NCBI GenBank assembly: GCA_021234155.1
Contig: JAJEKV010000034.1
Span: 7,484,028-7,548,027 of the forward strand
Direction: 5' to 3'
Length of the DNA: 64,000 nucleotides
Source of the DNA: Isoetes taiwanensis
Taxonomy: Eukaryota > Streptophyta > Lycopodiopsida > Isoetales > Isoetaceae
Part shown: piece after piece, positions 13,243 to 56,008 of the stretch
Layout: each line of letters opens with the position of its first letter
Numbering within the stretch: position 1 is the stretch's first letter
Position numbers and translations under genes: made by a program
Notes under the pieces: generated by a model
Database searches by the model: none
What the model was told of the DNA's origin: nothing
The model's input: the letters and a program-made list of their open reading frames with translations, nothing else

Positions 13243-13244
13243 GA

Positions 13245-13796
13245 TGTAGAAAAACATCATGCTAAAGTTGAAGATTCGAAGTGGAGTTGAAGTATAAACA
13301 CTACAAAAAAAAGGGGGCAAGCTAAATCTAAAGGTCAAGTGCATGAAAGTTTATGGTAAGCTTATCATTTGGGACCTTAGACCATTGAATATTTAAATTA
13401 CTTATCTTGGAGGAAATATGGAATCAAAGGTCGTTTTTGGAGGCAAACGAGATTATGAATATGGCAAGTCCGGAGATCTGTGAAGTGGCCGAGGTAAGTT
13501 CCTAATCGGCCGAATCCATACCAGGCGGTTGGATTGGCCCTATAAATACAGAAGCAGAATGATGATTAGGGTAGAGTGATCGGATCTAGCTCATCTAAGA
13601 TGAGGCTTGGGCTCTCGAGATATTTCTGTATTAATGTCAATGGTTTATACCATTGAAGTTGTTTGTTTGCTATAATCATATTGTCATATGATTATCTATT
13701 TCATGATATGATTTTGCAGTCACATATTTATATTGTCTAGTTAGTCTTTGATTTATCAACTGAAGATCTAAGTACTTAAGTTATCATTATTCTTCA
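13245..13796 (+). repeat. Copia LTR, copy A (552 bp)
   Basis: It begins TGTAGAAAAACATC and ends ATTATTCTTCA, that is TG...CA. It closely matches the LTRs at 34700-35251 and 40235-40608. A TATA box (TATAAATA) lies at 13541-13548. It is followed two bases later by a primer binding site, so it is a 5' LTR. No matching 3' LTR was found downstream. Confidence 0.92.
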
Positions 13797-28499: not shown

Positions 28500-28889
28500 G
28501 GTTGGACGGTACCTATCACCGTCGGCATGGCCACGAACTCAAATACTATTGAAAAGAGTTTTCATAAAATACTCTATCAAATGATAAGGAGAGTTGGCCC
28601 TCTTTCTCATCCTGAGATGCACACGAGACAAAAATTAGAGAACCCTATGACTGGAAGGGCCCTTCCCGCTATTCTCTGCAGTATCACTTCTATAACCTCG
28701 GGAACCATGGCCGGTTAGGCGGTTTGAACAGCATCGACCAGAAACAGGGGTGACCGCCAATTTACTTGTGACAGCCAGTTTTTAGCAGTTTTCGGCATAT
28801 TCTGGGCATATCCTAGCATATACTCAGAATATACCAAAACCCCACATGAACAAGGGTTTGCCCCCCTAGGGGCAACCCAAAAAAAAAAA
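28500..28889 (+). other. Non-coding block ending in a 12-base A-run
   Basis: A stretch ending GGGGCAACCC and then about 12 A residues (28878-28889) abuts the truncated copia pol copy directly. It looks like the 3' end of a reverse-transcribed RNA or SINE-like sequence joined to copia. No coding region is seen. Confidence 0.4.
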
Positions 28890-29908
28890 ATACTGAGGTA
28901 ATTCAAAACTCTGCTTTGCTTCAGACTTTAAATATCAGTGAAACTAAAGACAAAAATGATCTTTTTATTGTAGATTCGGGAGCTGAAAGATGCGTGATTA
29001 AAGATGGCAATGACCTAAAGGAGAAAACAAGAAGCATTTCTAGTTATATTCAGCTTGGAGATGGAAATCTGCAGCAAGTAGAGGAGTCAGGACTGTTAGA
29101 AATTTATGATCTGAATGGTCAACCAGTTGAACTCAAAAATATACTTTGTGTACCCTCAATGGTGAGGAATTTGGTTTCTGTTAGCCAACTTGTAGACTTA
29201 GGCTACAAAATCTGTGATGAAAAACAGCATTGTAATATTTTCCTTAAAGATGAATTGAAATTTATAGCCAAAAGATTTGGAAATTTATTTGCATTTGATA
29301 AAGCAAGAAGAAGGGTCAATAAATTTTACAGCCTTGTTATCAATCAAAAAATGGCATGAGAGGTTAGAACACACCCATATTAATAACATCAACTACATGA
29401 TTAAGAAAGGGATGATTGTTGCAGAAATGGAAAAACATGAGAACTTCATTTGTGAGGGATGCATGTTAGGGAAACATACCAGGCTTAGCTTCAAGAAATC
29501 TACTAAAAGGGCACGAGGGGCTCTGGATCTTATCCATACTGATTTATGTGGGCCTATTAACATTACAATAGAACAGTTACAGGAGAAAAGAGTGAAGGTT
29601 GACTAAGGGATTTTATCTTCCCTGTTGCAAAATAGCAGGAAAGAGTGAAGGTTGAATGGGGATTTTATCTTCCCTGATGCAAAATAGCAAGGCTCTATAA
29701 AGGGGTAAATTTAAGGCCTTGATAATCTTGTTACAGAATAAGCTTGGAGGAAGTTGAGTTAAAGGTTTTTTTATATTCCTTAACCAAATTGACTGATATC
29801 TTTTAACAAAATGAGCTGAGAGAAAGTTGAGTTAAAGGATTTTATCTTTCTTAACTTTAGAACCAGCTTTAACAACATAAATGAGCTTTAGCATGAAAGG
29901 AAGGAAGG
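28890..29908 (+). mobile_element. Copia internal domain #1, 5'-truncated (protease, GAG-pre-integrase, 3' end)
   Basis: Starts inside pol, equivalent to about 39220 in copy #2. The open frame 28916-29359 has the protease motif IVDSGAERC. The next frame, 29277-29606, has the zinc-finger integrase N-terminus (EHTHINNINYMI with CEGCMLGKHTRLSF). A frameshift at 29310 (ARRRVNKF against AREGSINF in #2) separates them. Sequence then jumps from GPINIT to a short tail ending in VKVD, exactly as in copy #2, so integrase core, RT and RNase H are deleted. About 300 bp of 3' sequence follows to the polypurine end GCATGAAAGG, where the GC-rich element begins. It cannot move on its own. Confidence 0.88.
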
Positions 29909-30879
29909 TACTTTTATCGTCCACGGAGACCAATCGGCCTATGGGACCCAATACAAAAACGCAGAAAGCGGATTATCGCCCGGATTAAAACCCCCACCCG
30001 AAGGGGTTTTCGAGGGAAAACCGGGCAAACAATCACCTGTGACAAACTAACGCACGAAATGCGAAAACACCCAAATATATCTGTCATGCACCGCACCCAG
30101 CAGATGCCTAATCAGCGGCGACAGCCAGGCGGGGCAAAGGTGACCTCGCAGTCCAAGACCTCACAGATATAAATGACCCCGGGGCACGCATCGGCGGTGT
30201 GTTCATCAGCAAATGTAAGGGCAAGTCCGGCCGCACTAAGGGGCATATCCGGTTCGATCGGATCAACTGGGCAACTCGGAAAGTGTGAGACTCATCCTCA
30301 ATGGCACCCGCTTTGGCAAAGATCGACAGAGCTTTGTCTGGCGGGGCTCCCCAATCCACCCGCCTCTCCTCGGGACGAAGATGGTGGGCACCTGTCTGCG
30401 AATGGAGGCAATGAGTCTGGCTTTTTCGAGGGGCAAATGGGAATGCGGTAGAGCTGTGGGCCCCGGGCTAACACCGTGGTTGATGTGCTCCTTGTAATGG
30501 GCCGTTTTGACACCTCTCTAGAGCCGGGTCCCCGAGCTTGCCAAGGAAACAAGCGTCCTAGGTACTCCCACACAGTCACCACGATGATGCGCCGCGGTCC
30601 ACACTGCGACGATCAGGCTCCCCGCGACGTTTAGTCTTGCGAACCACTGATCTCTCTTACCCCTCCAACAGGCCCTAAGCGGCTGCGGACTCATTGTCAC
30701 AAGTAAACCAGGTGGGGAGCCGAGGCATCACCCATAGTAACCACCTTCTGAAAATAGACGAGCGTGTCTATCAAGGGCCTGCCAGGCGGCAAGTATCCGA
30801 TTTCGCAGCGAGAATGATAGGGAACCCGAAGGTTTCACCCCAAGTGCCCGTGCCAAAATGCCTTCCGCGCACCGCTCCA

Positions 30880-34690: not shown

Positions 34691-34699
34691 TTTGGGGAA

Positions 34700-35251
34700 T
34701 GTAGAAAAATATCATGCTAAAGTTGAAGATTCGAAGTGCAGTTGAAGTATAAACACTACAAAAGAAAAGGGGCAAGCTAAATCTAAAGGTGAAGTGCATG
34801 AAAGTTTATGGTAAGCTTATCATTTGGGACCTTAGACCATTGAATATTTGAATTACTTATATTGGAGGAAATATGGAATCAAAGGTCGTCTTTGGAGGCA
34901 AACGAGATTATGAATATGGCAAGTCCGGAGATCTGTGAAGCGGCCGAGGTAAGCTCCTAATCGGCCGAATCCATACCAGGTGGTTGGATTGGCCCTATAA
35001 ATAAACAAGCAGGATGATGATTAGGGTAGAGTGATTGGATCTAGCTCATCAAAGATGAGGCTTGGGCTCTGGAGATATTTCTGTATTAATGTCAATGGTT
35101 TATACCATTGAACTTGTTTGTTTGCTATAATCATATTGTCATATGATTATCTATTTCATGATATGATTTTGAAGTCACATATTTATATTGTCTAGTTAGT
35201 CTTTGATTTATCAACTGAAGATCTAAGCACTTAAGTTATCATTATTCTTCA
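34700..35251 (+). repeat. Copia LTR, copy B (552 bp)
   Basis: TGTAGAAAAATATC...ATTATTCTTCA, full length, with TATAAATA at 34996-35003 and the primer binding site TGGTATCAGAGC at 35254-35265. It serves as 5' LTR of internal domain #2 and, by order, as the 3' LTR of the truncated domain #1. Confidence 0.93.
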
Positions 35252-35595: not shown

Positions 35596-36158
35596 TGTTG
35601 ACCGGGTTTTTGGCACCCGGTCAACATGAAAAGATTTGGGAAACAAAACCATTGGGGGGAGGGGTTGTTAAGAAATTGTGATATTGTAAAAGAGCTCAAT
35701 ATAAAGGCTCTTAAAAAATTATTAATGGTTGAAGAAGGGTGCATGTTCTATGGCCAGGATAAAGAGGCAAAAAAATGGAAGGCTATGATGAAGAGGCACA
35801 AATGGAGTGGCAAGATTAAGTGGTGCATATTGAAGGGTGGAGATGAAGAGGCAAGAATTATATAACTGTTTTGAGGAGCACGAGCTCCTCCTCTCTCCCT
35901 GCTCCACGATTTTGTGGAGGGTGGCGCCCTCCACATGATCTGGTGTAGAAGCCTCCCATGGTTCGAGACATGGGAGGATGATTTCCATTGTATTTCCATG
36001 CCAGTTCTTGATTATAAAAGAAGATTTTTGGGCCCATATTATTTTCTTATTCTTATTCCAATTCTGGTCAAGTATTTTGTTTTAATCTAGCAGCACCGGA
36101 TGATCTTGATTTCTGCCTTTGAGGTCGAATGATGGGGGTGTGGGAAAATCCGCCATCA
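35596..36158 (+). repeat. 5' LTR of the nested element
   Basis: 563 bp, TGTTGACCGGG...CCGCCATCA. A 5' inverted motif GACCGGGTTTTTGGCACCCGGTC can form a hairpin at the terminus. TATAAAAG at 36013-36020 is a likely promoter. Confidence 0.92.
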
Positions 36159-36289
36159 TTACGGAGGTCCTACCGAGATCATGTTCTTCCCCGGGATCTG
36201 TTTTGGTGCTGCAGATTTATTTGGGACAGGAGATATATGCAACAATCTAATATTCAAAAGGATCTGCAGGGCTATGAAGCTAAAGCTAG

Positions 36290-36755
36290 CCTTATTTGCA
36301 TCACTGGTCTCATATTGTTCTGTTCATTTCGGGCATCAGTTCTGTTGTACTCAGTTGTTTGTTCTTGTGCATATTTGGCTTGTCAGTTGTTGGCGTATTT
36401 TATAATCCAGGAGTACTCAATACTGCATATCTTGTTATCTATCTCTCACAGCTGGAATATCTGGATATGGATATGTTTCTGCAGATTTGTATGAGCAAAT
36501 GGATGGTGAAGGCTGGGGCCGAAATCTCTTGACTGCATCCCTTCTTTGTGGCCAGTTGTTTCTTGTTTTCTGCTTCAACAACAGCGTTGCTATTGGTTCT
36601 GGTTCACAGCTGCATTGCCATTTGGATGCAATAATATGGGCCCGTCACTTTATTCTCACAGTCCTCGGTGGAAACAAGAAGACAGAAATTTATGCTCCTT
36701 AACTAAGTATTATGAGCAAAAATCCATACAACATATGATGTACCTTCTCTGAATC
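36290..36755 (+). pseudogene. Captured TM9SF/nonaspanin (EMP70) gene fragment
   Basis: Shifting plus-strand frames match the C-terminal membrane part of plant TM9SF proteins, Golgi/endosomal nine-span proteins. Readable blocks are LCIFGLSVVGVFYNPGVLNT, AYLVIYLS, then GYVSADLYEQMDGEGWGRNL, LTASLLCGQLFLVFCFNNSV, TAALPFG and a KTEIYAP-like end with LTKYYEQ. No intron was noticed between these blocks, but I cannot tell whether the source was cDNA or genomic. At least two frameshifts are present. It lies wholly between the two LTRs, so it is transduced cargo rather than a host gene. Confidence 0.82.
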
Positions 36756-37042
36756 CTCGCTTCTGCTCTACTTTTCCCTTACCATTGTTTCTATCCAGAG
36801 ATCAACAATGTTGTAGGCCTATCAAAACTCAGAATCGGCTGTGCTCAGAACCTATTTTTCCAATCTCCACAAACCTGGACAAATGCCTGCCGGATCCTGC
36901 GCTACTTGGATATTTTCTGCCGATTCTGCCTATACATATGCTAAAATCTATGAAAAGCCAGCGCTAATCTCTCGACCTTCATAGCTGCTGCCGAAATCTC
37001 TGCTGTGTTGCCCTATTATTCGTGTCCTGCCCTATTTATTCT

Positions 37043-37225
37043 AGGGAAAACTACCAAAATACCCCTATGAGTTTGTATAATTACCAAAATGCCCTTATGA
37101 GTTTCAAAATTACCAAAATGCCCTTGTGTATAGAAGGTGTGTAGGGGCATTTTGGTAATTTTGAAACTCATAAGGGCATTTTGGTAATTACACAAACTCA
37201 TAGGGGTAGTTTGGTAGTTTTCCCT
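37043..37225. repeat. Near-perfect foldback hairpin inside the nested element
   Basis: The left arm starts AGGGAAAACTACCAAAATAC and is mirrored by the right arm ending GTAGTTTGGTAGTTTTCCCT. The arms are some 85 bp and the loop is about 10 bp (TAGAAGGTG region). The arms contain sub-repeats of CCAAAATGCCCTTATGAG type. Looks like a foldback MITE. Confidence 0.85.
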
Positions 37226-37658
37226 ATCCGCCATTCTGCTTCTGCCATTACCGTCCACCATATCCGCCATTCTGTCCGCCTCAATCTGCAGCCAAAATCT
37301 CTGTTGTGTTGCCCTATACGTGCCCTAATATTTTCTGTACTGTAAATGACGACCATTGCCTCCTTATTTTTTATTTTTTATTTTCATGTCTCCTTTCTCG
37401 ACCATTGCTTTTTCCTTGCTTAGCCCATTAAATCATGATACACAAATTTTTGTTTGGGCGTCCCTCTCCTAAAATTTGACCCCCTTCTCCTTACCTTGCC
37501 AAAAAGAATATATTTTCTTGACATTTGTCTCTACATTCATTTGAGCCTTTACCCAAAGCCCGAAATTACCATTGATTTTTTATTATCTTGGCATACAAAT
37601 TACATGGTGTGAAGTTCACGAAAAAAAAGCTTTAAATATATTTTCGAATCATTTTGAA

Positions 37659-37890
37659 AGGTTTGGAGGGATCCGTTAAAACCCCCATCTTTAAAAAAGG
37701 TTTGGAGGGATCCGTTAAAACCCCCATCTTCAGAAAGGTTTGGAGAGATCCGTTAAAACCCCCATCTTTAAAAAAGGTTTGGAGGGATCCGTTAAAACCC
37801 CCATCTTCAGAAAGGTTTGGAGGGATCCGTTAAAACCCCCATCTTTGAATTATTTAGAAAGGTTTGGAGGGATCCGTTAAAACCCCCAGT
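37659..37890 (+). repeat. Six-copy tandem repeat next to the 3' LTR of the nested element
   Basis: Units of 37-46 bp share AAAGGTTTGGAGGGATCCG and TTAAAACCCCCATCTT. Copies start at about 37659, 37698, 37735, 37775, 37812 and 37858. Several alternate spacers (TTTAAAAA and TTCAGA) recur in order, which indicates duplication of two-unit blocks. Confidence 0.85.
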
Positions 37891-37995
37891 TAGATCTTTT
37901 TTGTGCCAAAAAAGACTAACTTATTGTATTAAACATATGAAAATCTTTGAAGTAAGAGCGCCGAGGGGACCGGCTCATTTTTTGTTTGGGCGAGA

Positions 37996-38553
37996 TGTTG
38001 AGCGGGTTTTTGGCACCCGGTCAACATGAAAAGATTTGGGAAACAAAACCATTGGGGGTTGTGAAGAAATTGTGATATTGTAAAAGAGCTCAATATAAAG
38101 GCTCTTAAAAAATTATTAATGGTTGAAGAAGGGTGCATGTTCTATGGCCAGGATAAAGAGGCAAAAAAATGGAAGGCTATGATGAAGAGGCATAAATGGA
38201 GTGGCAAGATTAAGTGGTGCATATTGAAGGGTGGAGATGAAGAGGCAAGAATTATATAACTGTTTTGAGGAGCACGAGCTCCTCCTCTCTCCCTGCTCCA
38301 CGATTTTGTGGAGGGTGGCAGCCTCCACATGATCTGGTGTAGAAGCCTCCCATGGTTCAGAGACATGGGAGGATGATTTCCATTGTATTTCCATGCCAGT
38401 TCTTGATTATAAAAGAAGATTTTTGGGCCCATATTATTTTCTTATTCTTATTCCAATTCTGGTCAAGTATTTTGTTTTAATCTAGCAGCACCGGATGATC
38501 TTGATTTCTGCCTTTGAGGTCGAATGATGGGGGTGTGGGAAAACCCGCCATCA
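37996..38553 (+). repeat. 3' LTR of the nested element
   Basis: 558 bp, TGTTGAGCGGG...CCGCCATCA, matching the 5' LTR apart from a 7-bp indel and a few base changes. It is followed by the GATCC duplication and resumption of copia gag. Confidence 0.92.
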
Positions 38554-38578: not shown

Positions 38579-39223
38579 TTGATTAAAACATACGAAACAA
38601 AAACCTCATCTCAGCTCGATGTTCTGGATAGAAAACTCATATCACTAAGGTACAGTGAAAAGGATGATGGGACAGAATTTTTCCAGAGATTTGATAATCT
38701 CATAGCAGACTTGGAGGCAGCTGGGGTAACTATCACAAATGACCATCAGGTGATGACAATAGCAAGGGCCTTTCCAAACTATGAACAACTGTCTACATTA
38801 GTCAGGAATGTTGCAAAAAACACGGAGAAGGCAGAATTAATGGTTAGGACTGAGTTAGAACATAAATTCATAATTAAAGAACATGAAGAACATTCTGAAA
38901 TATTATATGCTGGGAAAGGAAAAGCTAATGATAAGAAAATAGGGCCTTGTTACCATTGCAATAATTATGGCCATCTCAAACATAACTGCCCTAAGCTGGC
39001 AAGGGAAAACATATGTTACAATTGTGAAGGTTTAGGACATCAAGCAGCAAATTGCTCAAGTCCAAGAAATTTTGCAAAAGGAAGAGGAAGAGGAGAATTC
39101 AGAGATGAATCTAAAGGAAGATTTAACAATAGAGGAAGAGGAAGAGGAAGGAGTATTGCCAAAATTAATTTAACCAAGGAAGTTAACAATGAAGATGTGG
39201 AAGAGGTGGACAAAAACTACTGA
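38579..39223 (+). pseudogene. Copia Gag C-terminal part with two zinc knuckles, domain #2
   Basis: Open for about 214 codons from the Gag core (LDVLDRKLISLRYSE, FFQRFDNLIADLEAAGV) through CYHCNNYGHLKHNC and CYNCEGLGHQAANC (both Cx2Cx4Hx4C), into an Arg/Gly-rich basic tail. Gag packages the element RNA. The frame ends early at DKNY by a one-base change compared with domain #3, where the equivalent residues read into pol. Confidence 0.85.
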
Positions 39224-39227
39224 GGTA

Positions 39228-39935
39228 ATTCAAAACTCTGATTTGCTTCAGACTTTAAATATCAGTGAAACTAAAGACAAAAATGACCTTTTTATTGTAG
39301 ATTCGGGAGCTGAAAGATGCGTGATTAAAGATGGCAATGACCTAAAGGAGAAAACAAGAAGCATTTCTAGTTATATTCAGCTTGGAGATGGAAATCTGCA
39401 GCAAGTAGAGGAGTCAGAACTGTTAGAAATTTATGATCTGAATGGTCAACCAGTTGAACTCAAAAATGTACTTTGTGTACCCTCAATGGTGAGGAATTTG
39501 GTTTCTGTTAGCCAACTTGTAGACTTAGGCTACAAAATCTGTTTTGAAAAACAGCATTGTAATATTTTCCTTAAAGATGAATTGAAATTTATAGCCAAAA
39601 GATTTGGAAATTTATTTGCATTTGATAAAGCAAGAAGAGAAGGGTCAATAAATTTTACAGCCTTGTTATCAATCAAAAAATGGCATGAGAGGTTAGGACA
39701 CACCCATATTAATAACATCAACTACATGATTAAGAAAGGGATGATTGTTGCAGAAATGGAAAAACATGAGAACTTCATTTGTGAGGGATGCATGTTAGGG
39801 AAACATACCAGGCTTAGCTTCAGGAAATCTACTAAAAGGGCACGAGGGGCTCTGGATCTTATCCATACTGATTTATGTGGGCCTATTAACATTACAATAG
39901 AACAGTTACAGGAGAAAAGAGTGAAGGTTGACTAA
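39228..39935 (+). pseudogene. Copia protease and GAG-pre-integrase region, domain #2 (truncated Pol)
   Basis: From LLQTLNISETKDK the frame holds the aspartic protease motif FIVDSGAERC and the Leu/Val-rich protease core (LCVPSMVRNLVSVSQLVDL). The integrase zinc-binding domain has His-His (WHERLGHTHINN) and Cys-Cys (CEGCMLGKH). It breaks at LIHTDLCGPINIT into a short foreign tail ending VKVD, removing the DDE core, RT and RNase H. Confidence 0.87.
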
Positions 39936-40234
39936 GGGATTTTATCTTCCCTGTTGCAAAATAGCAGGAAAGAGTGAAGGTTGAATGGGGATTTTATCTT
40001 CCCTGATGCAAAATAGTAAGGCTCTATAAAGGGGTAAATTTAAGGCCTTGATAATCTTGTTACAGAATAAGCTTGGAGGAAGTTGAGTTAAAGGTTTTTT
40101 TATATTCCTTAACCAGTCTGGACTGATATCTTTTAACAAAATGAGCTGAGAGAAAGTTGAGCTAAAGGATTTTATCTTTCTTAACTTTAGAACCAGCTTT
40201 AACAACAGAAATGAGCTTTAGCATGAAAGGGGAA

Positions 40235-40608
40235 TGTAGAAAAATATCATGCTAAAGTTGAAGATTCGAAGTGCAGTTGAAGTATAAACACTACAAAAGA
40301 AAAGGGGCAAGCTAAATCTAAAGATTAAGTGCATGAAAGTTTATGGTAAGCTTATCATTTGGGACCTTAGACCATTGAATATTTGAATTACTTATATTGG
40401 AGTAAATATGGAATCAAAGGTCGTTTTTGGAGACAAACGAGATTAATGTCAATGGTTTATACCATTGAACTTGTTTGTTTGCTATAATCATATTGTCATA
40501 TGATTATCTATTTCATGATATGATTTTGAAGTCACATATTTATATTGTCTAGTTAGTCTTTGATTTATCAACTGAAGATCTAAGCACTTAAGTTATCATT
40601 ATTCTTCA
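40235..40608 (+). repeat. Copia LTR, copy C, with internal deletion (374 bp)
   Basis: Same TG...CA ends as copies A and B but lacks about 178 bp. The join is at ATTA, present on both sides of the deleted part (microhomology). The deletion removes the TATAAATA promoter region. The PBS TGGTATCAGAGC follows at 40611-40622. It serves as 3' LTR of domain #2 and 5' LTR of domain #3. Confidence 0.92.
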
Positions 40609-40635
40609 TTTGGTATCAGAGCTGGTTTTCTAATC

Positions 40636-41569
40636 ATGACTATTAGACTGGGTGCTTCATTATTGACTGCAGTTGAGGTGTTCAAGGGAACAGGAGGATT
40701 CCAAGTGTGGAAAGAAAAAATTAAAGAGGTGCTTGAAGTAGAAGGCTTATGGACATATGTTGGTGAGGATGCAGAGATAAATGAAGAAGTCAGTGATTCA
40801 AACAAAGGCACAGCAAAGGAGAAAACAAGTGACAGCACAAGCTCTGAAGTGACCAGCAAGGAGGTCTGCAAAATTAATAGCGGCTAAAAGTATAATTACT
40901 GTAAAATTGGGATCTAGTATTCTGTTGAAGGTTAGAGGGATGATCCCTAGGGCTATTTGGAAATTCTTGATTAAAACATATGAAACAAAAACCTCATCTC
41001 AGCTCGATGTGCTAGATAGAAAACTCAGATAACTAAGGTACAGTGAAAAGGATGATGGGACAGAATTTTTCTAGAGATTTGATAATCTCATAGCAGACTT
41101 GGAGGCAGCTGGGGTAACTATCACAAATGACCATCAGGTGATGACAATAGCAAGGGCCTTTTCAAACTATGAACAGCTGTCTACATTAGTCAGGAATGTT
41201 GCAAAAAACAGGGAGAAGGCAGAATTAATGGTTAGGACTGAGTTAGAACATAAATTCATAATTAAAGAACATGAAGAACATTCTGAAATATTATATGCTG
41301 GGAAAGGAAAAGCTAATGATAAGAAAATAGGGCCTTGTTACCATTGCAATAATTATGGCCATCTCAAACATAACTGCCCTAAGTTGGCAAGGGAAAACAG
41401 ATGTTACAATTGTGAAGGTTTAGAACATCAAGCAGCAAATTGCTCAAGTCCAAGGAATTTTACAAAAGGAAGAGGAAAAGGAGAATTCAGAGATGAATCT
41501 AAAGGAAGATTTAACAATAGAGGAAGAGGAAGAGGAAGAGGAAGAGGAAGGAGTGTTGCCAAAAATTAA
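40636..41569 (+). pseudogene. Copia Gag, domain #3
   Basis: N-terminus 40636-40887 (MTIRLGASLLTAVEVFKG) is nearly identical to domain #2. The core follows without the nested element, then a stop near 41070, and the 41099-41569 frame with CYHCNNYGHLKHNC and CYNCEGLEHQAANC. In the second knuckle Gly is changed to Glu. The intact junction AGGGATGATCCCTAGGGC at about 40936 proves where the nested element inserted in copy #2. Confidence 0.85.
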
Positions 41570-41619
41570 TTTAACCAAGGAAGTTAACAATGAAGATGTG
41601 GAAGAGGTGGATGAAAATA

Positions 41620-42003
41620 CTGAGGTAATTCAAAACTCTGATTTGCTTCAGACTTTAAATATCAGTGAAATTAAAGACAAAAATGATCTTTTTATTCTAG
41701 ATTCGAGAGCTGAAAGATGCGTGATTAAAGATGGCAATGACCTAAAGGAGAAAACAAGAAGCATTTCTAGTTATATTCAGCTTGGAGATGGAAATTTGCA
41801 GCAAGTAGAGGAGTCAGGAATGTTAGAAATTTATGATCTGAATGGTCAACCAGTTGAACTCAAAAATGTACTTTGTGTACCCTCAATAGTGAGGAATTTG
41901 ATTTCTGTTAGCCAACTTGTAGACTTAGCTACAAAATCTATTTTGAAAAACAACATTGTAATATTTTCCTTGAAGATGAATTGAAATTAGTTGGAAATTT
42001 ATT
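41620..42003 (+). pseudogene. Copia protease, domain #3, active-site glycine lost
   Basis: Frame DLLQTLNISEIKDK...FILDSRAERC. The universal D-S/T-G aspartic protease triad reads D-S-R, caused by GGG to AGA-type change, while domains #1 and #2 keep DSG. The frame ends where the inserted block begins. Confidence 0.82.
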
Positions 42004-42620
42004 AATCTATACCGTACATAAAGTTCCTCGTTTGTGGGGTATGCAAGTACAAAATTTGCTATACTGTATAACAAGATTCGCAAAATACTATAAGATTTCA
42101 AGCAGAATACTATATGGTGTTGATTTCGTACGTGCAAAATACAATTATGAAGGCTCTCGCTGCCCTACGTCACCCCCCGTGTGAATATGCACCTAAACCA
42201 AAGGGGGTTTAAGGGGGATTTTAATTTAAATGTGTTGGACCCAATGGTTGTGTTAATTAATGTCAATAGTAGTTATGTGTTGATTGTTAATGTCAATGGT
42301 TGTTATGTGTTGGTTGTTATGTGTTGGGGAATTTAATTTTTATATGTTGGATGTTAATGGTTTGTGTTGCAAAAAATTTTTTTTGGCCCCTTCAGGGCCT
42401 TAGGGACGTCCCCCCCCGGTGTGACAAAAACTTTAGAATTCAAACCAGAACAAAACTAGAATTCATTTGAGGCTTTCATCACCTGTAGCTTTTGAATTTG
42501 ATCACAATAAAACAAATAGAACATAAGTAAAATTTACCATAAAGATAGAGCAGATTGATCCCTTATTCTGGAAGTCATAAAGTTTGCAACACAAAGAAAA
42601 CCCCCTGTTATTATGCTACA

Positions 42621-43079
42621 TATAACAATCAACATACAACTACCATTAACAATGTTAATAGAAACCATTGCATTTAACACATTTAAATTAAAACCCCCCT
42701 TAAACCCCCTTTCGTTTGGGTGCATATTCACACGGGGGGTTACTCCGGGCAACGAGAGCTGTCGGATGGGCATATTTGCCCTTTATTCCAAGATCTGGAC
42801 CGCACATAGCGATCCTCGTTTGTGGGGTATGCATGTACAAGTTTTTGTATACTGTATATTAAAATTTGCAAAATACTATAAGGTTTGAGAGAATGTACTT
42901 AATGGTGTTAATTTTCTACGTGTATTGTAAATATATTTTTGGAGCTCTACGCCCCCGTAACCCCCTCGTGAATATGCACCCAAACGAAAGGGGGTTTAAG
43001 GGGGGTTTTAATTTAAATGTGTTAAATGCAATGGTTTCTATTAATATTGTTAATGGTAGTTGTATGTTGATTGTTATAT
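42621..43079. repeat. Large inverted repeat, arms about 120 bp
   Basis: Left arm 42621-42741 and right arm 42961-43079 are near-exact reverse complements. They contain AATATGCACCCAAACGAAAG, GTTTAAGGGGGGTTTTAATT and TATTGTTAATGGTAGTTG. A diverged copy in the right-arm orientation starts at about 42180. Each copy in that orientation is preceded by CCTCGTTTGTGGGGTATGCA about 150 bp upstream (42024 and 42815). Confidence 0.85.
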
Positions 43080-44832
43080 TAAAAAAATTTTTGGGCCCTT
43101 CGGGCCCTATAGGTAAACTTTATGGGCCTAAATATTAATTACTAAAAAGCACAATAACATCAAGACAAACAAATTATTTCCGCAAAGCATTCATGAGCAT
43201 AGCATCAATACAAAAGAAATGGCAATCATAACCGGCATTGGCATCCAATATCTAGCATTAAAACAAGATTAGCTTTCTATGTTGGAATTACGGCAGCTTT
43301 ATGGTGCAAATGCTATCTTATAAATGTCCCCGAAATGGCAGTTTCAAGTTCTGGCTCTGTTCAAGCATCATAGAACCATATGCCCTCTCCACGGTACAGA
43401 GAACAAAAAACTCCAATACTTGATTGCTCCATGAAACATTTCTCTTTAATGTTAAGAATACATGGGGCGGTTTTCAAAAACAGAAAGATGCATCTATTTA
43501 GAACAACAATACCACTATCAAAAGATTTAAGTATGATAGTACCACAATTGAATGAGTTATCAGATTGAGCATCCACAATAAACTTCATTTCTTCTATAGC
43601 TAATAAATTCAAGTGTAGGTAGATCATTTTGATGATTGCATACCATTTACCTCATCTGTCGGGCACCGCATAAGCAATTCTTTGTATATGGGCGTTAGAA
43701 GGACCTAGTCTCAGAGGTTTTCACCCAAAGACCGAGATCAAGCTTTTGGTCCGGATCTGTCACACGGCTCAAACAAATGCAGATTGCACCCTCTCAAACG
43801 AATGCGAAAATGGTCCCTAAACAGGTTCCTCGGCTTCATCCCGAAAACCCATAATTTATCCAGTACAAATCTGAGCCTTCAAATATGATGAGCCTTCAAA
43901 TATGATGGAGCATTGTTAAGAAACTTAGGAGACGCCTTTTACATCTGAAAATTTGGCGGTATGGCTAACAGAAAAGGGGTGAGGCCAGGCAAAGCTAACG
44001 AAAAGGGGGTTTGAGGCCGTGCAAAGAAACGAGGAAACGAATCGGTCTATTTATCAAAGACGATCAAAGCGTAGGGCTACTGACGCAAAACACGAGAGCC
44101 AAGATTCGGGAAAAATGTGGGCTGCCCGGAACCTGGCGGATTCGGATTTGCCACTATTTTTTAGCCTCCGCCATCTCCATGGCCGCCGGACTTCCTGATC
44201 AGAAAAAATCCCAAGCTTTTTGCTGTTAAAACGATGAGCTTCCAAACGCTCATAATATTTAAGAGCAGGCCCATCCCCGCCTTCTTGGCATGTTCACACG
44301 CACTGTGCTCTTCGCGAGACACCCTTTATTCTTTTGCGCTTAGGCACCGCTTCGAATTGAATTACGCTTCCCTTAAAGTCGCCCGAATTGTTATATCTCC
44401 CGTCTTTATGCCAATGAAATGAAGATTTTGATATAAGAACGAAATGTGAAAAGTGAAAAGTTAATGTCAGATCTGTTTAAAAACCTGTTGCGGCCATAGA
44501 AGCACGTTTGCCAGATCCCACATAAACAAGCAGCAGCCCAGCAGGTTCCCAGCAGGTTTTGTTCTTCCCAGCAAGTTTTGATCGCCCGAAGCCTTGAGAT
44601 CCGCCATAGCCACATCTTAGAGATTTGCCGACTTTGGGTACCAAAATAATAAGCCATAGCCATGGAAGCCCAAAGCTCAAAAAATAGCTCCAGATTTGAA
44701 TCCAGCAATCCCCAAGCACGAGTTGCAATCCCAAGCACTAGTTGCTCCTTTCCTACACAAACCCTAAAGCCCTAAAGTTTTTGTAGCCCTAAAGTTAAAC
44801 CACAGCCTCGCAAATCAACGGTTAAAAATTGA

Positions 44833-45803
44833 TGCACTCTAGAAATACTATTTAGTATGCGCACCCGAATACAGCCACAAAATCATAGAAAAACCATATA
44901 GAAAAGCGTATAAAATATCAAAAGTTAACCCCCTGTTATAATGCTACATATTGTTACTTCCGCTACAACTATTTCTCTTTCACAATGACACCATTGTTTA
45001 TCAATCCATATGATTTTGGATGCTCCGTCTCTAGCTTAAAGGTAATGCATGATTCACCTTACGGTTTGATTAAAGTTCCAAACCTACAATATAAATGCAT
45101 TGTTGTGGCCACTGCTTGACTGATCTACGTGACATGGAAAAGGGTGTGGAATAATCCGCATGTTGTGTGCATAAGAATCCATTTGTTGATTGAAGCTAAA
45201 GGCTGGCTACTATGAACAATCCAGCAGCCAGGAATATCCAAGAGTTGGAAGCAAACAGAGGGCCTAAACTTGAATCTGCAGCAAATCTTAGGAAGGAAAC
45301 AAAAGGGGGTTTTGCAGCACTACATTGTAGAATCAGGAAACCAATACCTTGTAAAAAAAAAACATTATGCTAACTGAAGAAACATTAAAAAACAAATACT
45401 TTGTAAGTGTGAGCAAAAAATCCATCTCGTGGTAGTAAAATTCACTCCAGCAATAAGAATCCAAGAGGGCAAGTACACGTGCATATGCACACATGCACAT
45501 ACATGCACACATGCACATGCACTTGCACTTGCACTTGCACTTGCACATGCACATGCACAATACACATGCACATGCACATGCACACACATGCACATGCATG
45601 TGCACATGCACGCACAAACATATGCAGAGAAAGACAACAACCCTCGGATTGTTCCCATCAACGAAAATCAACGGCCCATAAATGGTGCACTCTAGAAATA
45701 CTATTTAGTACACCTCAACGAATACAACAACGAAATCATAGAAAAACCATGTGAAAAAACGTATAAAAATCTAAAAGTAACCCCCTGTTATTGTGCTACA
45801 TAT
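44833..45803. repeat. Direct repeats of about 119 bp bounding about 735 bp
   Basis: 44833-44951 and 45686-45803 share TGCACTCTAGAAATACTATT, TCATAGAAAAACCAT and the CCCCCTGTTAT...GCTACATAT end. The second copy forms the right edge of the insertion in copia. They resemble terminal direct repeats of a small element. Confidence 0.8.
45476..45625. repeat. ACATGC/ACTTGC-type hexamer microsatellite
   Basis: About 150 bp of CACATG and CACTTG hexamers. They make Cys/Thr/His-rich spurious reading frames on both strands, which are not genes. Confidence 0.92.
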
Positions 45804-46657
45804 GGGTCAATAAATTTTACAGCCTTGTTATCAATCAAAAAATGGCATGAGAGGTTAGGACACACCCATATTAATAACATCAACTACATGATTAAGAAAG
45901 GGATGATTGTTGCAGAAATGGAAAAACATGAGAACTTCATTTGTGAGGGATGCATGTTAGGGAAACATACCAGGCTTAGCTTCAAGAAATCTACTAAAAG
46001 GGCACGAGGGGCTCTGGATCTTATCCATACTGATTTACATGGGCCTATTAACATTACAAGTCTGACGAGAAAAAGGTTCTTTATTACTTTCATTGATGAC
46101 TTCTCAAGGAAGACAAAATACTACATTCTCAGACACAAAGACCAAGCATTTGATGCATACAAAATATTTGAGCAAGAAGTTGAACGAGAAATAGGGAGGA
46201 AGAATCAAATGCATTAGATCAAACAGGGGTGGAGAATTCTTGTCAGGAGAGTTTAACAAATACTGCAAAAGCAAAGGGATAAGAAGGCAATTAACGTGTA
46301 GATACACCCCTCAACAAAATGGAATTGCTGAGAGGAAGAATTGGACAATTCTAGACGTTTGTCAGGTCCATGCTCAAGCAATCAGGGATGCCAAATTATT
46401 TATGGGATAAAGCAGTAAAAACAGCAGTACTGATCCAAAATAAACTCCCTTCAGCCTCCATAAAAGGTATGACACCAGAAGAAATGTGGGATGGGCATAA
46501 ACCTACCTATGATATGTTCAAGATCTATGAATGTGTTGCTTATGTGCATGTTCCAAAGAAAATGAGGAAGAAACTCGATGACAGGTCAATCAAATGCTAT
46601 CTTATAGGGTATGACGAGCCCTCTAAAGGATATATGCAAATAAAAAACAAATTTTGA
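45804..46657 (+). pseudogene. Copia integrase, domain #3
   Basis: HHCC finger (KKWHERLGHTHINN, CEGCMLGKH), then the DDE core: LDLIHTDLHGPINI, FFITFIDDFSRKTKYY, SNRGGEFLSGEF and QQNGIAERKNWT. A one-base frameshift near 46200 and another near 46350 split it into 45825-46217, an out-of-frame middle and 46370-46657 (GMTPEEMWDGHKPTYDMF). All three acidic residues remain identifiable, but the protein cannot be made in one piece. Confidence 0.87.
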
Positions 46658-46831
46658 TAAGTAGAGATGTGATCTTTGATGAGACATGTGTCTACAAAGA
46701 CAGGAATATTAGCTCAAAGATAAATGAGTCAAAAGAAGAAAAGGGTAAACTACAAAAGGAGGTACATTTTCAGAACACAGAGGCATATGAATTGGATGGT
46801 GAATTAAACGAATAACACACAGGGTGAAACA

Positions 46832-48097
46832 ATGCAAGGGGAAATAGAACAGGAAGAACAATTGCTGCAAGGGAAAGTTGAAGACAATAATATTGAGGGA
46901 ATTCAGAAGGAAGGTCAGATTTTAGCTAAAGATAAAGGAAGAAGAAAAACAGAGTTAGAAAAACTCAGGAAACAACTGGATATAGACTCATCAGAATATG
47001 GGAGAACAGAAAATGGCAAAAGTAGAAGAATAAACAAAGAGGCAGTAGACATCAATTATGTACTTGCTTTACTAGAACCCACCATTCCTCTAAGTTATGA
47101 AGAAGCAATTAAATCAGATTATTCTGAAGAATGGAAGCAGGCCATGTGGGAAGAAATGCAAGCATTTGCAAGAACAAACACCTATGAGGTAGTCGAGAAG
47201 CCAAAGGACAAGAATGTTATTGGAAGCAAATGGATTTACAAACTAAAAACATGTTTAAATGGTGAATTGAAGTTCAAGGCTCGACTTGTAGCACAGGGAT
47301 TCACACAAAAGAAAGGATTGGATTATGAAGAGACATTATCTCCAATAGTCAAACTAACGAGCATAAGAATTCTGTTAGCATTTGCAAATGCAAACTGCCT
47401 GAAAGTACATCACATGGATGTAAGTACTGCATTCCTAAATGCTGAGCTTGATGAGGAAGTTTACATGAGACAAGCATGTGGTTTTGAAGTAAAACAAGAA
47501 GGCATGGTGTGGAGACTTAAACGAGCAGTCTATGGGTTAAAACAATCCCCAAGGATGTGGTATAACTGTATTGATCAGTATCTGCAAGAACAAGGATTTA
47601 AGAAATTTCTAAATGATGGAAATATTTATATTTTGAAATTCTCAGACAAAAAGACCAAGCATTTAATGCATACAAAATATTTGAGCAAGAAGTTGAACGA
47701 GAAACATGGAGGAAAAATCAAATGCATTAGATCAGACAGGGGTGGAGAATTCTTGTCAGGAGAGTTTAACAAATGCTGCAAAAGCAATTTGAACTGGAAA
47801 AATCAATTTTGCATTATTGCGTTATATGTGGACGACAATATTATGATTCCAAGTGATCCAGAGATATTGGAACATTGCAAGAAAATTCTTAAGAACAAGT
47901 TTCAAATGACAGATCTAGGGCAGTTGAAAAAATTCTTAGGAATGGATGTAAGCATAGATATGCATGACAAAAGGTTAACTATTACACAAAAAGGGAATAT
48001 TGAAGGTATGCTCAAGAGGTGCAAGGTGTCAAAAACACCAATAGTGCAAGGTCATAGACTGTCCTCAGACATGAGTCCAAAGACAATGGCAGAATAG
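46832..48097 (+). CDS. Copia RT reading frame with an internal copied integrase segment
   Basis: 421 open codons: an acidic linker, then RT from DINYVLALLEPTIP with WKQAMWEEMQAF, VIGSKWIYKLK, ARLVAQGFTQKKGLDYEETL, HHMDVSTAFLNAELDEEVYM, VYGLKQSPRMWY, the catalytic LYVDDNIMI and FLGMDVSI. Between GNIYILKF and FCIIALYVDD about 160 bp (47636-47795) match integrase at 46126-46275, including SDRGGEFLSGEFNKC. The piece replaces or enlarges the loop before the YVDD strand and keeps the frame open, with part of it read in a shifted frame. RT activity is doubtful because the insertion lies next to the active site. Confidence 0.88.
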   Translation: MQGEIEQEEQLLQGKVEDNNIEGIQKEGQILAKDKGRRKTELEKLRKQLDIDSSEYGRTENGKSRRINKEAVDINYVLALLEPTIPLSYEEAIKSDYSEEWKQAMWEEMQAFARTNTYEVVEKPKDKNVIGSKWIYKLKTCLNGELKFKARLVAQGFTQKKGLDYEETLSPIVKLTSIRILLAFANANCLKVHHMDVSTAFLNAELDEEVYMRQACGFEVKQEGMVWRLKRAVYGLKQSPRMWYNCIDQYLQEQGFKKFLNDGNIYILKFSDKKTKHLMHTKYLSKKLNEKHGGKIKCIRSDRGGEFLSGEFNKCCKSNLNWKNQFCIIALYVDDNIMIPSDPEILEHCKKILKNKFQMTDLGQLKKFLGMDVSIDMHDKRLTITQKGNIEGMLKRCKVSKTPIVQGHRLSSDMSPKTMAE

Positions 48098-48119
48098 GAA
48101 CAAATGGAAAGGGTGCCAT

Positions 48120-48430
48120 ACAGAGAATTGATAGGTTGTTTACTGCCAATAGTACCAGGCCAGATATTTCCTTCACTGTGAGTCTTCTTAAGCAGATTTA
48201 CAAACAATCCAGGATACCAGCATTGGGCAGCTGCAAAAAGGATACTCAGATATCTAAAATATACTCAAACACATGGCTTAACTTTTAGCAATAGCAATCT
48301 AACTCTCACAGGGTATGCTGATGTAGATTGGGGAAGTGAAATTGACTCTAGAAAGTCAACTTCTGGATATTGTCTCATGATAGGTGGAGCCTCAGTTGCT
48401 TGGAAAAGCAAAAATCATGTGTGGCAATGT
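48120..48430 (+). pseudogene. Copia RNase H, truncated, domain #3
   Basis: Frames with PYRELIG, AAAKRILRYLKYTQTHGLTF, GYADVDWGSEIDSRKSTSGY and ASVAWKSKNH. This is the copia RNase H start, but it carries a frameshift near 48190 and breaks off after WKSKNH, where unrelated AT-rich sequence begins. Confidence 0.82.
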
Positions 48431-48440
48431 CTACAACATG

Positions 48441-48834
48441 ATCCTCCAAACCTCTCTTTATTGAATAAAGTGCATGTTTCCTTATAACTGTTAAATTATT
48501 GAAAATCAAGCTAGATTTGCATACTATGTATCTAGTTAACAGAAGAACTAACGAGTCCTATTTTTTGTGCTGAAGCTAACCTAATCTTAGGGTTGCTAAA
48601 TTCGATTTCTATACATTTTAAGGGGTGCAAGGTTTTGCAGTCATAGATATCCTCCAAACCTCTCTTTATTGAATAAAGTGCATGTTTCCTTATAACTGTT
48701 AAATTATTGAAAATCAAGCTAGATTTGCATACTATGTATCTAGTTAATAGAAGAACTAATGAGTCCTTAATCTTAGGGTTGCTAAATTCGATTTCTATAC
48801 ATTTTAAGGGGTGCAAGGTTTTGCAGTCATAGAT
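48441..48834. repeat. Tandem duplication of about 190-208 bp
   Basis: Copy 1 (48441-48648) and copy 2 (48649-48834) start ATCCTCCAAACCTCTC and end TTTTGCAGTCATAGAT. Copy 2 lacks some 22 bp (the region reading ATTTTTTGTGCTGAAGC in copy 1). It directly follows the broken end of copia domain #3. Confidence 0.9.
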
Positions 48835-49700: not shown

Positions 49701-49704
49701 TTAA

Positions 49705-49775
49705 GAATAGAATAGAATAGAATAGAATAGGTTTTTAGCGTCCACGGAGACCAATTGGCCTATGGGACCCAAACA
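49705..49775 (-). mobile_element. 3' terminus of the GC-rich LINE family (5'-truncated copy)
   Basis: A (GAATA)n stretch is followed by GCGTCCACGGAGACCAATTG and GCCTATGGGACCCA, the same text as the 3' end of the GC-rich element at about 29920-29950. On the minus strand this is a 3' tail with a CTATT-type terminal repeat, as in LINEs that end in short repeats. It is a very short copy. Confidence 0.65.
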
Positions 49776-50034
49776 AAGGAACCATGGTGTTGTGAAAATA
49801 TTCTGTACATTATGGCAATATAATTTCAATACCATATGTTCGATCCACATAGACCATGTTTTTTTATTTTTAGTCAAAATGTTATTGGCCATTGATCTCG
49901 CACAATACCAGGAATATCCGACAGATCAATGACTGTGAAAGAAACCAAGAATAAAGCCCATAAAAAGAGTAATAAACAATACTTAGATAAAGGAATGGCA
50001 GCTTTCAGTTTGTACATTACAAAGAATAAATAGG

Positions 50035-56008
<5,974 letters not shown>

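What the first reader, a model, noticed from the sequence alone, without database searches (positions are those of the whole stretch)
47636..47800. Piece of integrase copied in frame into the RT next to the YVDD active site
Seen: about 150 bp at 47636-47795 match 46126-46275 closely (both contain GGTGGAGAATTCTTGTCAGG), yet the 421-codon RT frame stays open across it. Equivalent copia RTs have only a few residues between YILKF and the ALYVDD strand. The two copies share the frame relation of the damaged integrase. Inference: intra-element gene conversion or template jumping during reverse transcription created a new RT-integrase-RT arrangement.
Basis: partly seen in the sequence, partly recalled or inferred. 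Interest (0 to 1): 0.75.

Follow-up and report, generated by a model that had tools for sequence, protein, structure and literature searches.

The report
Repair scar inside a dead retrotransposon
A 150-letter piece of the integrase gene of a decayed plant-type retrotransposon was copied into its own reverse-transcriptase gene, most likely while the cell mended a local DNA break; no other copy checked carries it and the element is dead, so this is ordinary genome wear and not a new enzyme.

Summary
Window 47638-47787 is a gap-free copy (143 of 150 bases identical) of the element's own integrase at 46125-46274, flanked by a 6-base direct repeat, TTTGAA. In 32 of 32 other copies that could be paired across the site, the flanks abut and nothing is inserted. 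The net addition is 156 nt, so the RT frame stays in phase; one of the insert's three sense frames is free of stops. Donor and insert share a 1-nt insertion absent from 12 of 12 other aligned copies, and a pattern search found it only at these two places. The piece was therefore copied from this very element, after its integrase was frameshifted. Both exact junctions occur once, so there is no sign that the chimera amplified. The RT frame ends at a stop (48095-48097), the integrase is broken and no 3' LTR was found. Best explanation: a repair-mediated duplication; a staggered break was filled in, giving the 6-nt duplication, and patched with sequence from 1.36 kb away. This class is described in vertebrates and, as filler DNA, in plants. 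A double template jump during reverse transcription is the main rival and is not excluded.

The parts
46125..46274 (+). donor: part of the integrase region of the same element, already frameshifted by one extra nucleotide
47632..47637 (+). left copy of 6-nt target duplication TTTGAA
47638..47787 (+). inserted copy of the integrase piece, 143/150 identical to the donor
47788..47793 (+). right copy of 6-nt target duplication TTTGAA
46808..48094 (+). 429-codon stop-to-stop frame with copia-type RT (RVT_2), interrupted in phase by the 156-nt addition; ends at a stop at 48095-48097
45805..48438 (+). remaining pre-integrase/integrase/RT/part of RNase H region of the decayed copia-type element; similarity to the relative in contig C1045 ends here and no 3' LTR was found (a 77-nt match to another relative at 49704-49779 may be a further remnant)
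40229..41988 (+). 5' LTR (internally deleted; apparently shared with the preceding unit) and gag region of the same element, cut from the pol part by a 3.8-kb interruption (41989-45803)

Best explanation
A repair-mediated (templated or filler) duplication in an already integrated, decaying Ty1/copia-type element. A staggered double-strand break, or two offset nicks, opened the RT region at TTTGAA. Fill-in of the overhangs duplicated those 6 nt. The gap was patched with a 150-nt copy of nearby DNA, the element's own frameshifted integrase 1.36 kb upstream on the same chromosome. The phase-preserving length (156 nt) and the open frame are luck: about one in three for the length, and one of three sense frames free of stops. 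Shown: copy, donor identity, empty sites, 6-nt duplication, single occurrence of the junctions, broken element. Inferred: the break, the fill-in and the repair pathway.
For: Empty site in 32 of 32 other paired copies, against one filled locus, this one. The target stands once in each of 15 aligned relatives (as TTTGAA in 4, as a variant such as CTTGAA or TTTGAC in the other 11) and twice here. A 1-nt insertion shared by donor and insert is absent from 12 of 12 other aligned copies and found at no third place at up to 3 mismatches. The seven differences split 3 private to the donor and 4 private to the insert, as expected for free decay of both. Both junction patterns occur once at zero mismatch in the 1.66-Gb assembly. 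The locus was rearranged in place: its three LTR copies are 95-100% alike over aligned parts while the next best of 40 scored of 51 candidates is 81%; the pol-deletion joint of two units was found only at two places in this window (40 of 44 candidates scored); and there is a further local tandem duplication at 48441-48834. Size and distance match proximal repair-mediated duplications in PMC2671141 (passages: median 147 bp; apparent peak about 1.2 kb apart, which its authors say may be an artefact; target-site duplications in 6 of 39 inspected, class range 4-21 nt).
Against: No microhomology at either junction (by eye), although all 39 proximal cases tabulated in PMC2671141 have microhomology, filler or a deletion as I read the table ('TSD only' 0 of 39; column heads were not in the passage). 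The insert is longer than the fillers in the plant passages I saw (up to 60 bp; 1-123 bp). Insert and donor have the same orientation, as template jumping would require. Timing does not separate the models: all 3 private substitutions of the donor stretch came after the copying (one of them rests on only four relatives), so the copying happened early in this copy's separate history. Donor-insert divergence (7/150) is nominally higher than that between local units (30/1034, 3/256, 2/338). The right-junction pattern had 15 matches at up to 3 mismatches against 2 for its reversed control, and 11 of those sites were not opened.
Confidence: 0.7

Rival explanations
1. Double template jump during the reverse transcription that made this copy: minus-strand synthesis left the RT region, copied 150 nt of integrase from the same or a co-packaged RNA, and returned 6 nt behind the point of departure.
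For: Sense orientation; donor in the same element; the copying dates to early in this copy's separate history (0 of 3 private substitutions of the donor stretch precede it). Abnormal template switching in plant LTR elements is published (PMC1950507, abstract and part 1 of 2 of the text).
Against: Needs two jumps without homology at the landing sites, and a template already carrying the frameshift, yet no other copy with that frameshift was found. The 6-nt re-copying has no special reason.
Confidence: 0.22
2. Gene conversion between the two parts of the element.
For: Donor and acceptor lie in one element.
Against: Nothing homologous was replaced: 156 nt were added at a site empty in 32 of 32 other paired copies; no homology flanking the joints is seen by eye.
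Confidence: 0.03
3. A selected or amplified chimeric RT with a working integrase-derived loop.
For: The frame is open across the insert and the insert sits in a short variable turn just before the YVDD strand.
Against: Junctions found once; four changes private to the insert; RT frame stops at 48095-48097 before the rest of the RT/RNase H region, and integrase is broken.
Confidence: 0.01
4. Assembly artefact.
For: Single assembly, no reads available.
Against: Insert and donor differ at 7 of 150 bases with changes private to each, and there is a clean 6-nt target duplication; a misassembly would be expected to give identical copies.
Confidence: 0.02

Closest known systems
Repair-mediated duplication by capture of proximal chromosomal DNA (PMC2671141, vertebrates; passages)
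   Same: Insert of about 150 bp interrupting a transposable element, donor 1-2 kb away in cis, empty site in relatives, short target-site duplication
   Different: Plant-type genome (inferred); donor is itself part of the interrupted element (that study's pipeline excluded repeat-derived inserts); no microhomology, filler or deletion seen
Filler DNA / templated insertion and patch-type repair in plants (PMC7156093, PMC7971508, PMC5217109, PMC4423477; passages)
   Same: DNA copied into a break from a template, often in cis; repair of adjacent nicks gives direct duplications
   Different: 150 nt is longer than the 60-bp maximum in the Arabidopsis nuclease assay and the 1-123 bp fillers at rice transposon excisions; the donor lies 1.36 kb away, whereas many templates in the assay lay within 100 bp
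Template-switch complexes of LTR retrotransposons (PMC1950507; part 1 of 2 of the text)
   Same: LTR element with rearranged structure; units sharing an LTR occur in this window
   Different: Those are whole-element fusions joined through LTRs; this is a 150-nt internal insert

Membership tests
Repair-mediated (templated) duplication | donor in cis within about 5 kb | tested here: met
   1363 nt between donor end and insert start
Repair-mediated (templated) duplication | empty site in relatives, single filled locus | tested here: met
   32 of 32 other paired copies empty; copies beyond the scored candidates not seen
Repair-mediated (templated) duplication | short target-site duplication (in some cases) | tested here: met
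   TTTGAA twice here; once in each of 15 aligned relatives, exact in 4 and as a variant in 11; 31 of 32 other pairs give the same 5-nt overlap of the two flank queries, the 32nd gives 13
Repair-mediated (templated) duplication | microhomology, filler or deletion at the breakpoints | tested here: not met
   0 nt of microhomology by eye, no extra bases, no loss; present in all 39 proximal cases tabulated in PMC2671141 as I read it, so this lowers the fit to that exact class
Repair-mediated (templated) duplication | formed from a double-strand break in the chromosome | not testable with these tools
   inferred from the scar only
Ty1/copia-type LTR retrotransposon (carrier element) | RVT_2 reverse transcriptase downstream of integrase | tested here: met
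   PF07727 E 5.2e-66; PF13976 and PF25597 upstream
Ty1/copia-type LTR retrotransposon (carrier element) | two LTRs | tested here: not met
   a related element in contig C1045 has two LTRs (98.6%); this copy has one damaged, apparently shared 5' LTR and no 3' LTR found, so it is a remnant
Reverse-transcription template-switch product | homology at the jump sites | tested here: not met
   none seen by eye; not strictly required
Reverse-transcription template-switch product | sense orientation of the copied piece | tested here: met
Reverse-transcription template-switch product | parent or sibling copies sharing the frameshift or the junctions | tested here: not met
   none found

The most novel reading that the evidence does not exclude
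Two template jumps in one reverse-transcription cycle produced a copia-type RT with a 52-residue, in-phase integrase-derived loop beside its YVDD site, which then integrated once and never moved again.
Probability: 0.2. Interest if true: 0.3.

Novelty: new member of a known kind. Interest (0 to 1): 0.12.

Why it matters
It shows how an in-frame domain insertion that looks like a new protein arrangement can be a break-repair scar in dead DNA. The empty sites in many sister copies, a donor-specific indel and the target duplication make the history unusually readable, but the process is already described.

Tried and rejected
AlphaFold model of the interrupted RT piece with six relatives: mean pLDDT 34.6, pTM 0.26; useless, so nothing is said about whether the loop is tolerated. 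PDB sequence search with the RT piece: no hit up to E 1. LTR dating of this copy: not possible, because its 5' LTR is apparently shared with the preceding unit and no 3' LTR was found. Comparing donor-insert divergence (7/150) with private changes of this copy (41/2275) and with local unit pairs: too few changes to order the events; only 'early in this copy's history' can be said.

Junction patterns gave 28 (left) and 15 (right) matches including this locus, against reversed controls of 16 and 2; all but the window's own have 2-3 mismatches. Six of them became loci (L033-L035, L037-L039) and do not align to the RT region; the other 24 left and 11 right sites were not opened, so the excess over the right-hand control stays unexplained. 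Counts of copies are lower bounds: 40 of 648, 40 of 1962 and 40 of 819 candidates were scored. For one search I took 40 of the 41 rows (leaving out the row for query 1-174 of a copy in C907 whose other row, 218-258, was kept), one C962 row, and all 40 rows; 33 paired, 8 left and 7 right rows found no partner and were left out of the count.

Full report
What is there. Window 46125-46274 and 47638-47787 are 150-nt direct repeats, 143 of 150 identical without a gap. The first lies in the integrase region of a Ty1/copia-type element, the second inside its RT: Pfam gives gag_pre-integrs, SH3_retrovirus and RVT_2 in that order along the strand. The RT frame is open from 46808 to 48094 and ends at a stop, 48095-48097. 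In six of six aligned relatives five residues separate N(I/V)YI from QFCIIALYVDD; here 57 do.

Exact anatomy. Aligned with 15 relatives, the RT flanks abut in every one. A wider count paired left- and right-flank matches: 33 loci paired, one of them this locus with 151 nt between the two queries; 31 of the other 32 show the same 5-nt overlap of the flanks and one shows 13. Because the right query began one base late (47789), this means that six bases stand once in the empty sites and twice here, at 47632-47637 and 47788-47793. Those bases are TTTGAA in 4 of the 15 aligned relatives (C1080, C1045, C512, C445) and a variant such as CTTGAA, TTTGAC or CTTGAC in the other 11. Net gain: 150 + 6 = 156 nt, 52 codons. 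Of the insert's three sense frames one has no stop, the others two and three, so an in-phase open frame is roughly a one-in-nine accident (inference), not a sign of selection.

Who was the donor. The window's integrase and the insert share a one-nucleotide insertion. All 12 other copies aligned lack it, and a 30-nt pattern with up to 3 mismatches finds it nowhere else in 1.66 Gb; a copy that has it but differs at more than three other positions would have been missed. Apart from itself, the insert's best match is this element's own integrase (95%), then a copy in contig C962 (94%, lacking the extra base). So the donor was this very element, after its integrase had been frameshifted. The seven differences are three private to the donor and four private to the insert.

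Not amplified, not functional. Both junction patterns exist once at zero mismatch, and only this locus joins insert and RT flanks in a 321-nt search (40 of 648 candidates scored). The right-junction pattern had more 3-mismatch matches than its reversed control (15 against 2 in all); the three opened (L037-L039) do not align to the RT region, the rest were not opened. Integrase is interrupted by a stop and a change of frame, the RT frame stops early and lacks five residues that relatives have, the similarity to the C1045 relative ends at 48438, and no 3' LTR was found; a 77-nt match to the C907 relative at 49704-49779 may be a remnant beyond another interruption.

How it arose. The scar (copy from 1.36 kb away in cis, 6-nt direct duplication, no homology at the joints by eye) fits repair of a staggered break with a patch of nearby DNA. 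PMC2671141 (passages) describes such repair-mediated duplications inside transposable elements: proximal ones have median length 147 bp, distances seem to peak near 1.2 kb (which its authors say may be an artefact), and target-site duplications occur in 6 of 39 inspected (class range 4-21 nt). Against the match, a duplication without microhomology, filler or deletion was 0 of those 39 as I read the table, whose column heads were not in the passage. In plants, filler DNA from templates more often in cis (PMC7156093), templated insertions up to 60 bp (PMC5217109), fillers of 1-123 bp at transposon excisions (PMC4423477) and duplications from repair of adjacent nicks (PMC7971508; PMC8355091) are described; passages only were seen.

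The neighbourhood speaks for rearrangement in place. Three LTR copies in the window are 95-100% alike over aligned parts, while the next in the genome is 81% (40 of 51 candidates scored). Two pol-deleted units share a deletion joint found at these two places only (40 of 44 candidates scored). Unit 2 and this element appear to share an LTR. A further tandem duplication sits at 48441-48834.

Timing. In 2275 comparable sites this copy has 41 private substitutions (1.8%). In the donor stretch all three private ones came after the copying (one of them is judged against four relatives only). Donor-insert divergence, 7/150, is nominally larger than that between local units (30/1034, 3/256, 2/338) and LTR pairs (20/553; 5/217 plus 0/167). 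So the copying is early in this copy's separate history, and an origin in the reverse-transcription cycle that made the copy is not excluded. I give it 0.22.

Verdict. The 'new RT-integrase-RT arrangement' is, as far as these searches reach, a single scar in a dead element. A new instance of a known process; low interest.

Noticed in passing
13244-13796, 34694-35251, 40229-40608: Three LTR copies of one local family, 95-100% alike over aligned parts, while the next best LTR in the genome is 81% (40 of 51 candidates scored); looks like a locally expanded array, the third LTR internally deleted and apparently shared by two units.
   Followed up: partly
28885-29910 and 39212-40238: Two units with the same large pol deletion (integrase start joined to the 3' end region); the joint was found only at these two places (40 of 44 candidates scored).
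   Followed up: partly
48441-48648 and 48649-48834: Tandem duplication of about 208 nt directly beside the point where the element's similarity ends; 2 substitutions in 186 sites and 22 gap columns.
   Followed up: no
35596-38553: Nested insertion in unit 2 with terminal direct repeats 35596-36158 / 37996-38553 (97.7%), probably another LTR element.
   Followed up: no
41989-45803: 3.8-kb interruption of the element, with inverted repeats within 42153-43079 and a CACATG-type microsatellite near 45476-45617.
   Followed up: no
50035-52116 (minus strand): Exon-like frames, two of three tested (50716-51060, 51766-52116) with protein kinase domain matches and one (50035-50424) with none; probably a plant receptor-like kinase gene (the plant reading is inference).
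   Followed up: partly
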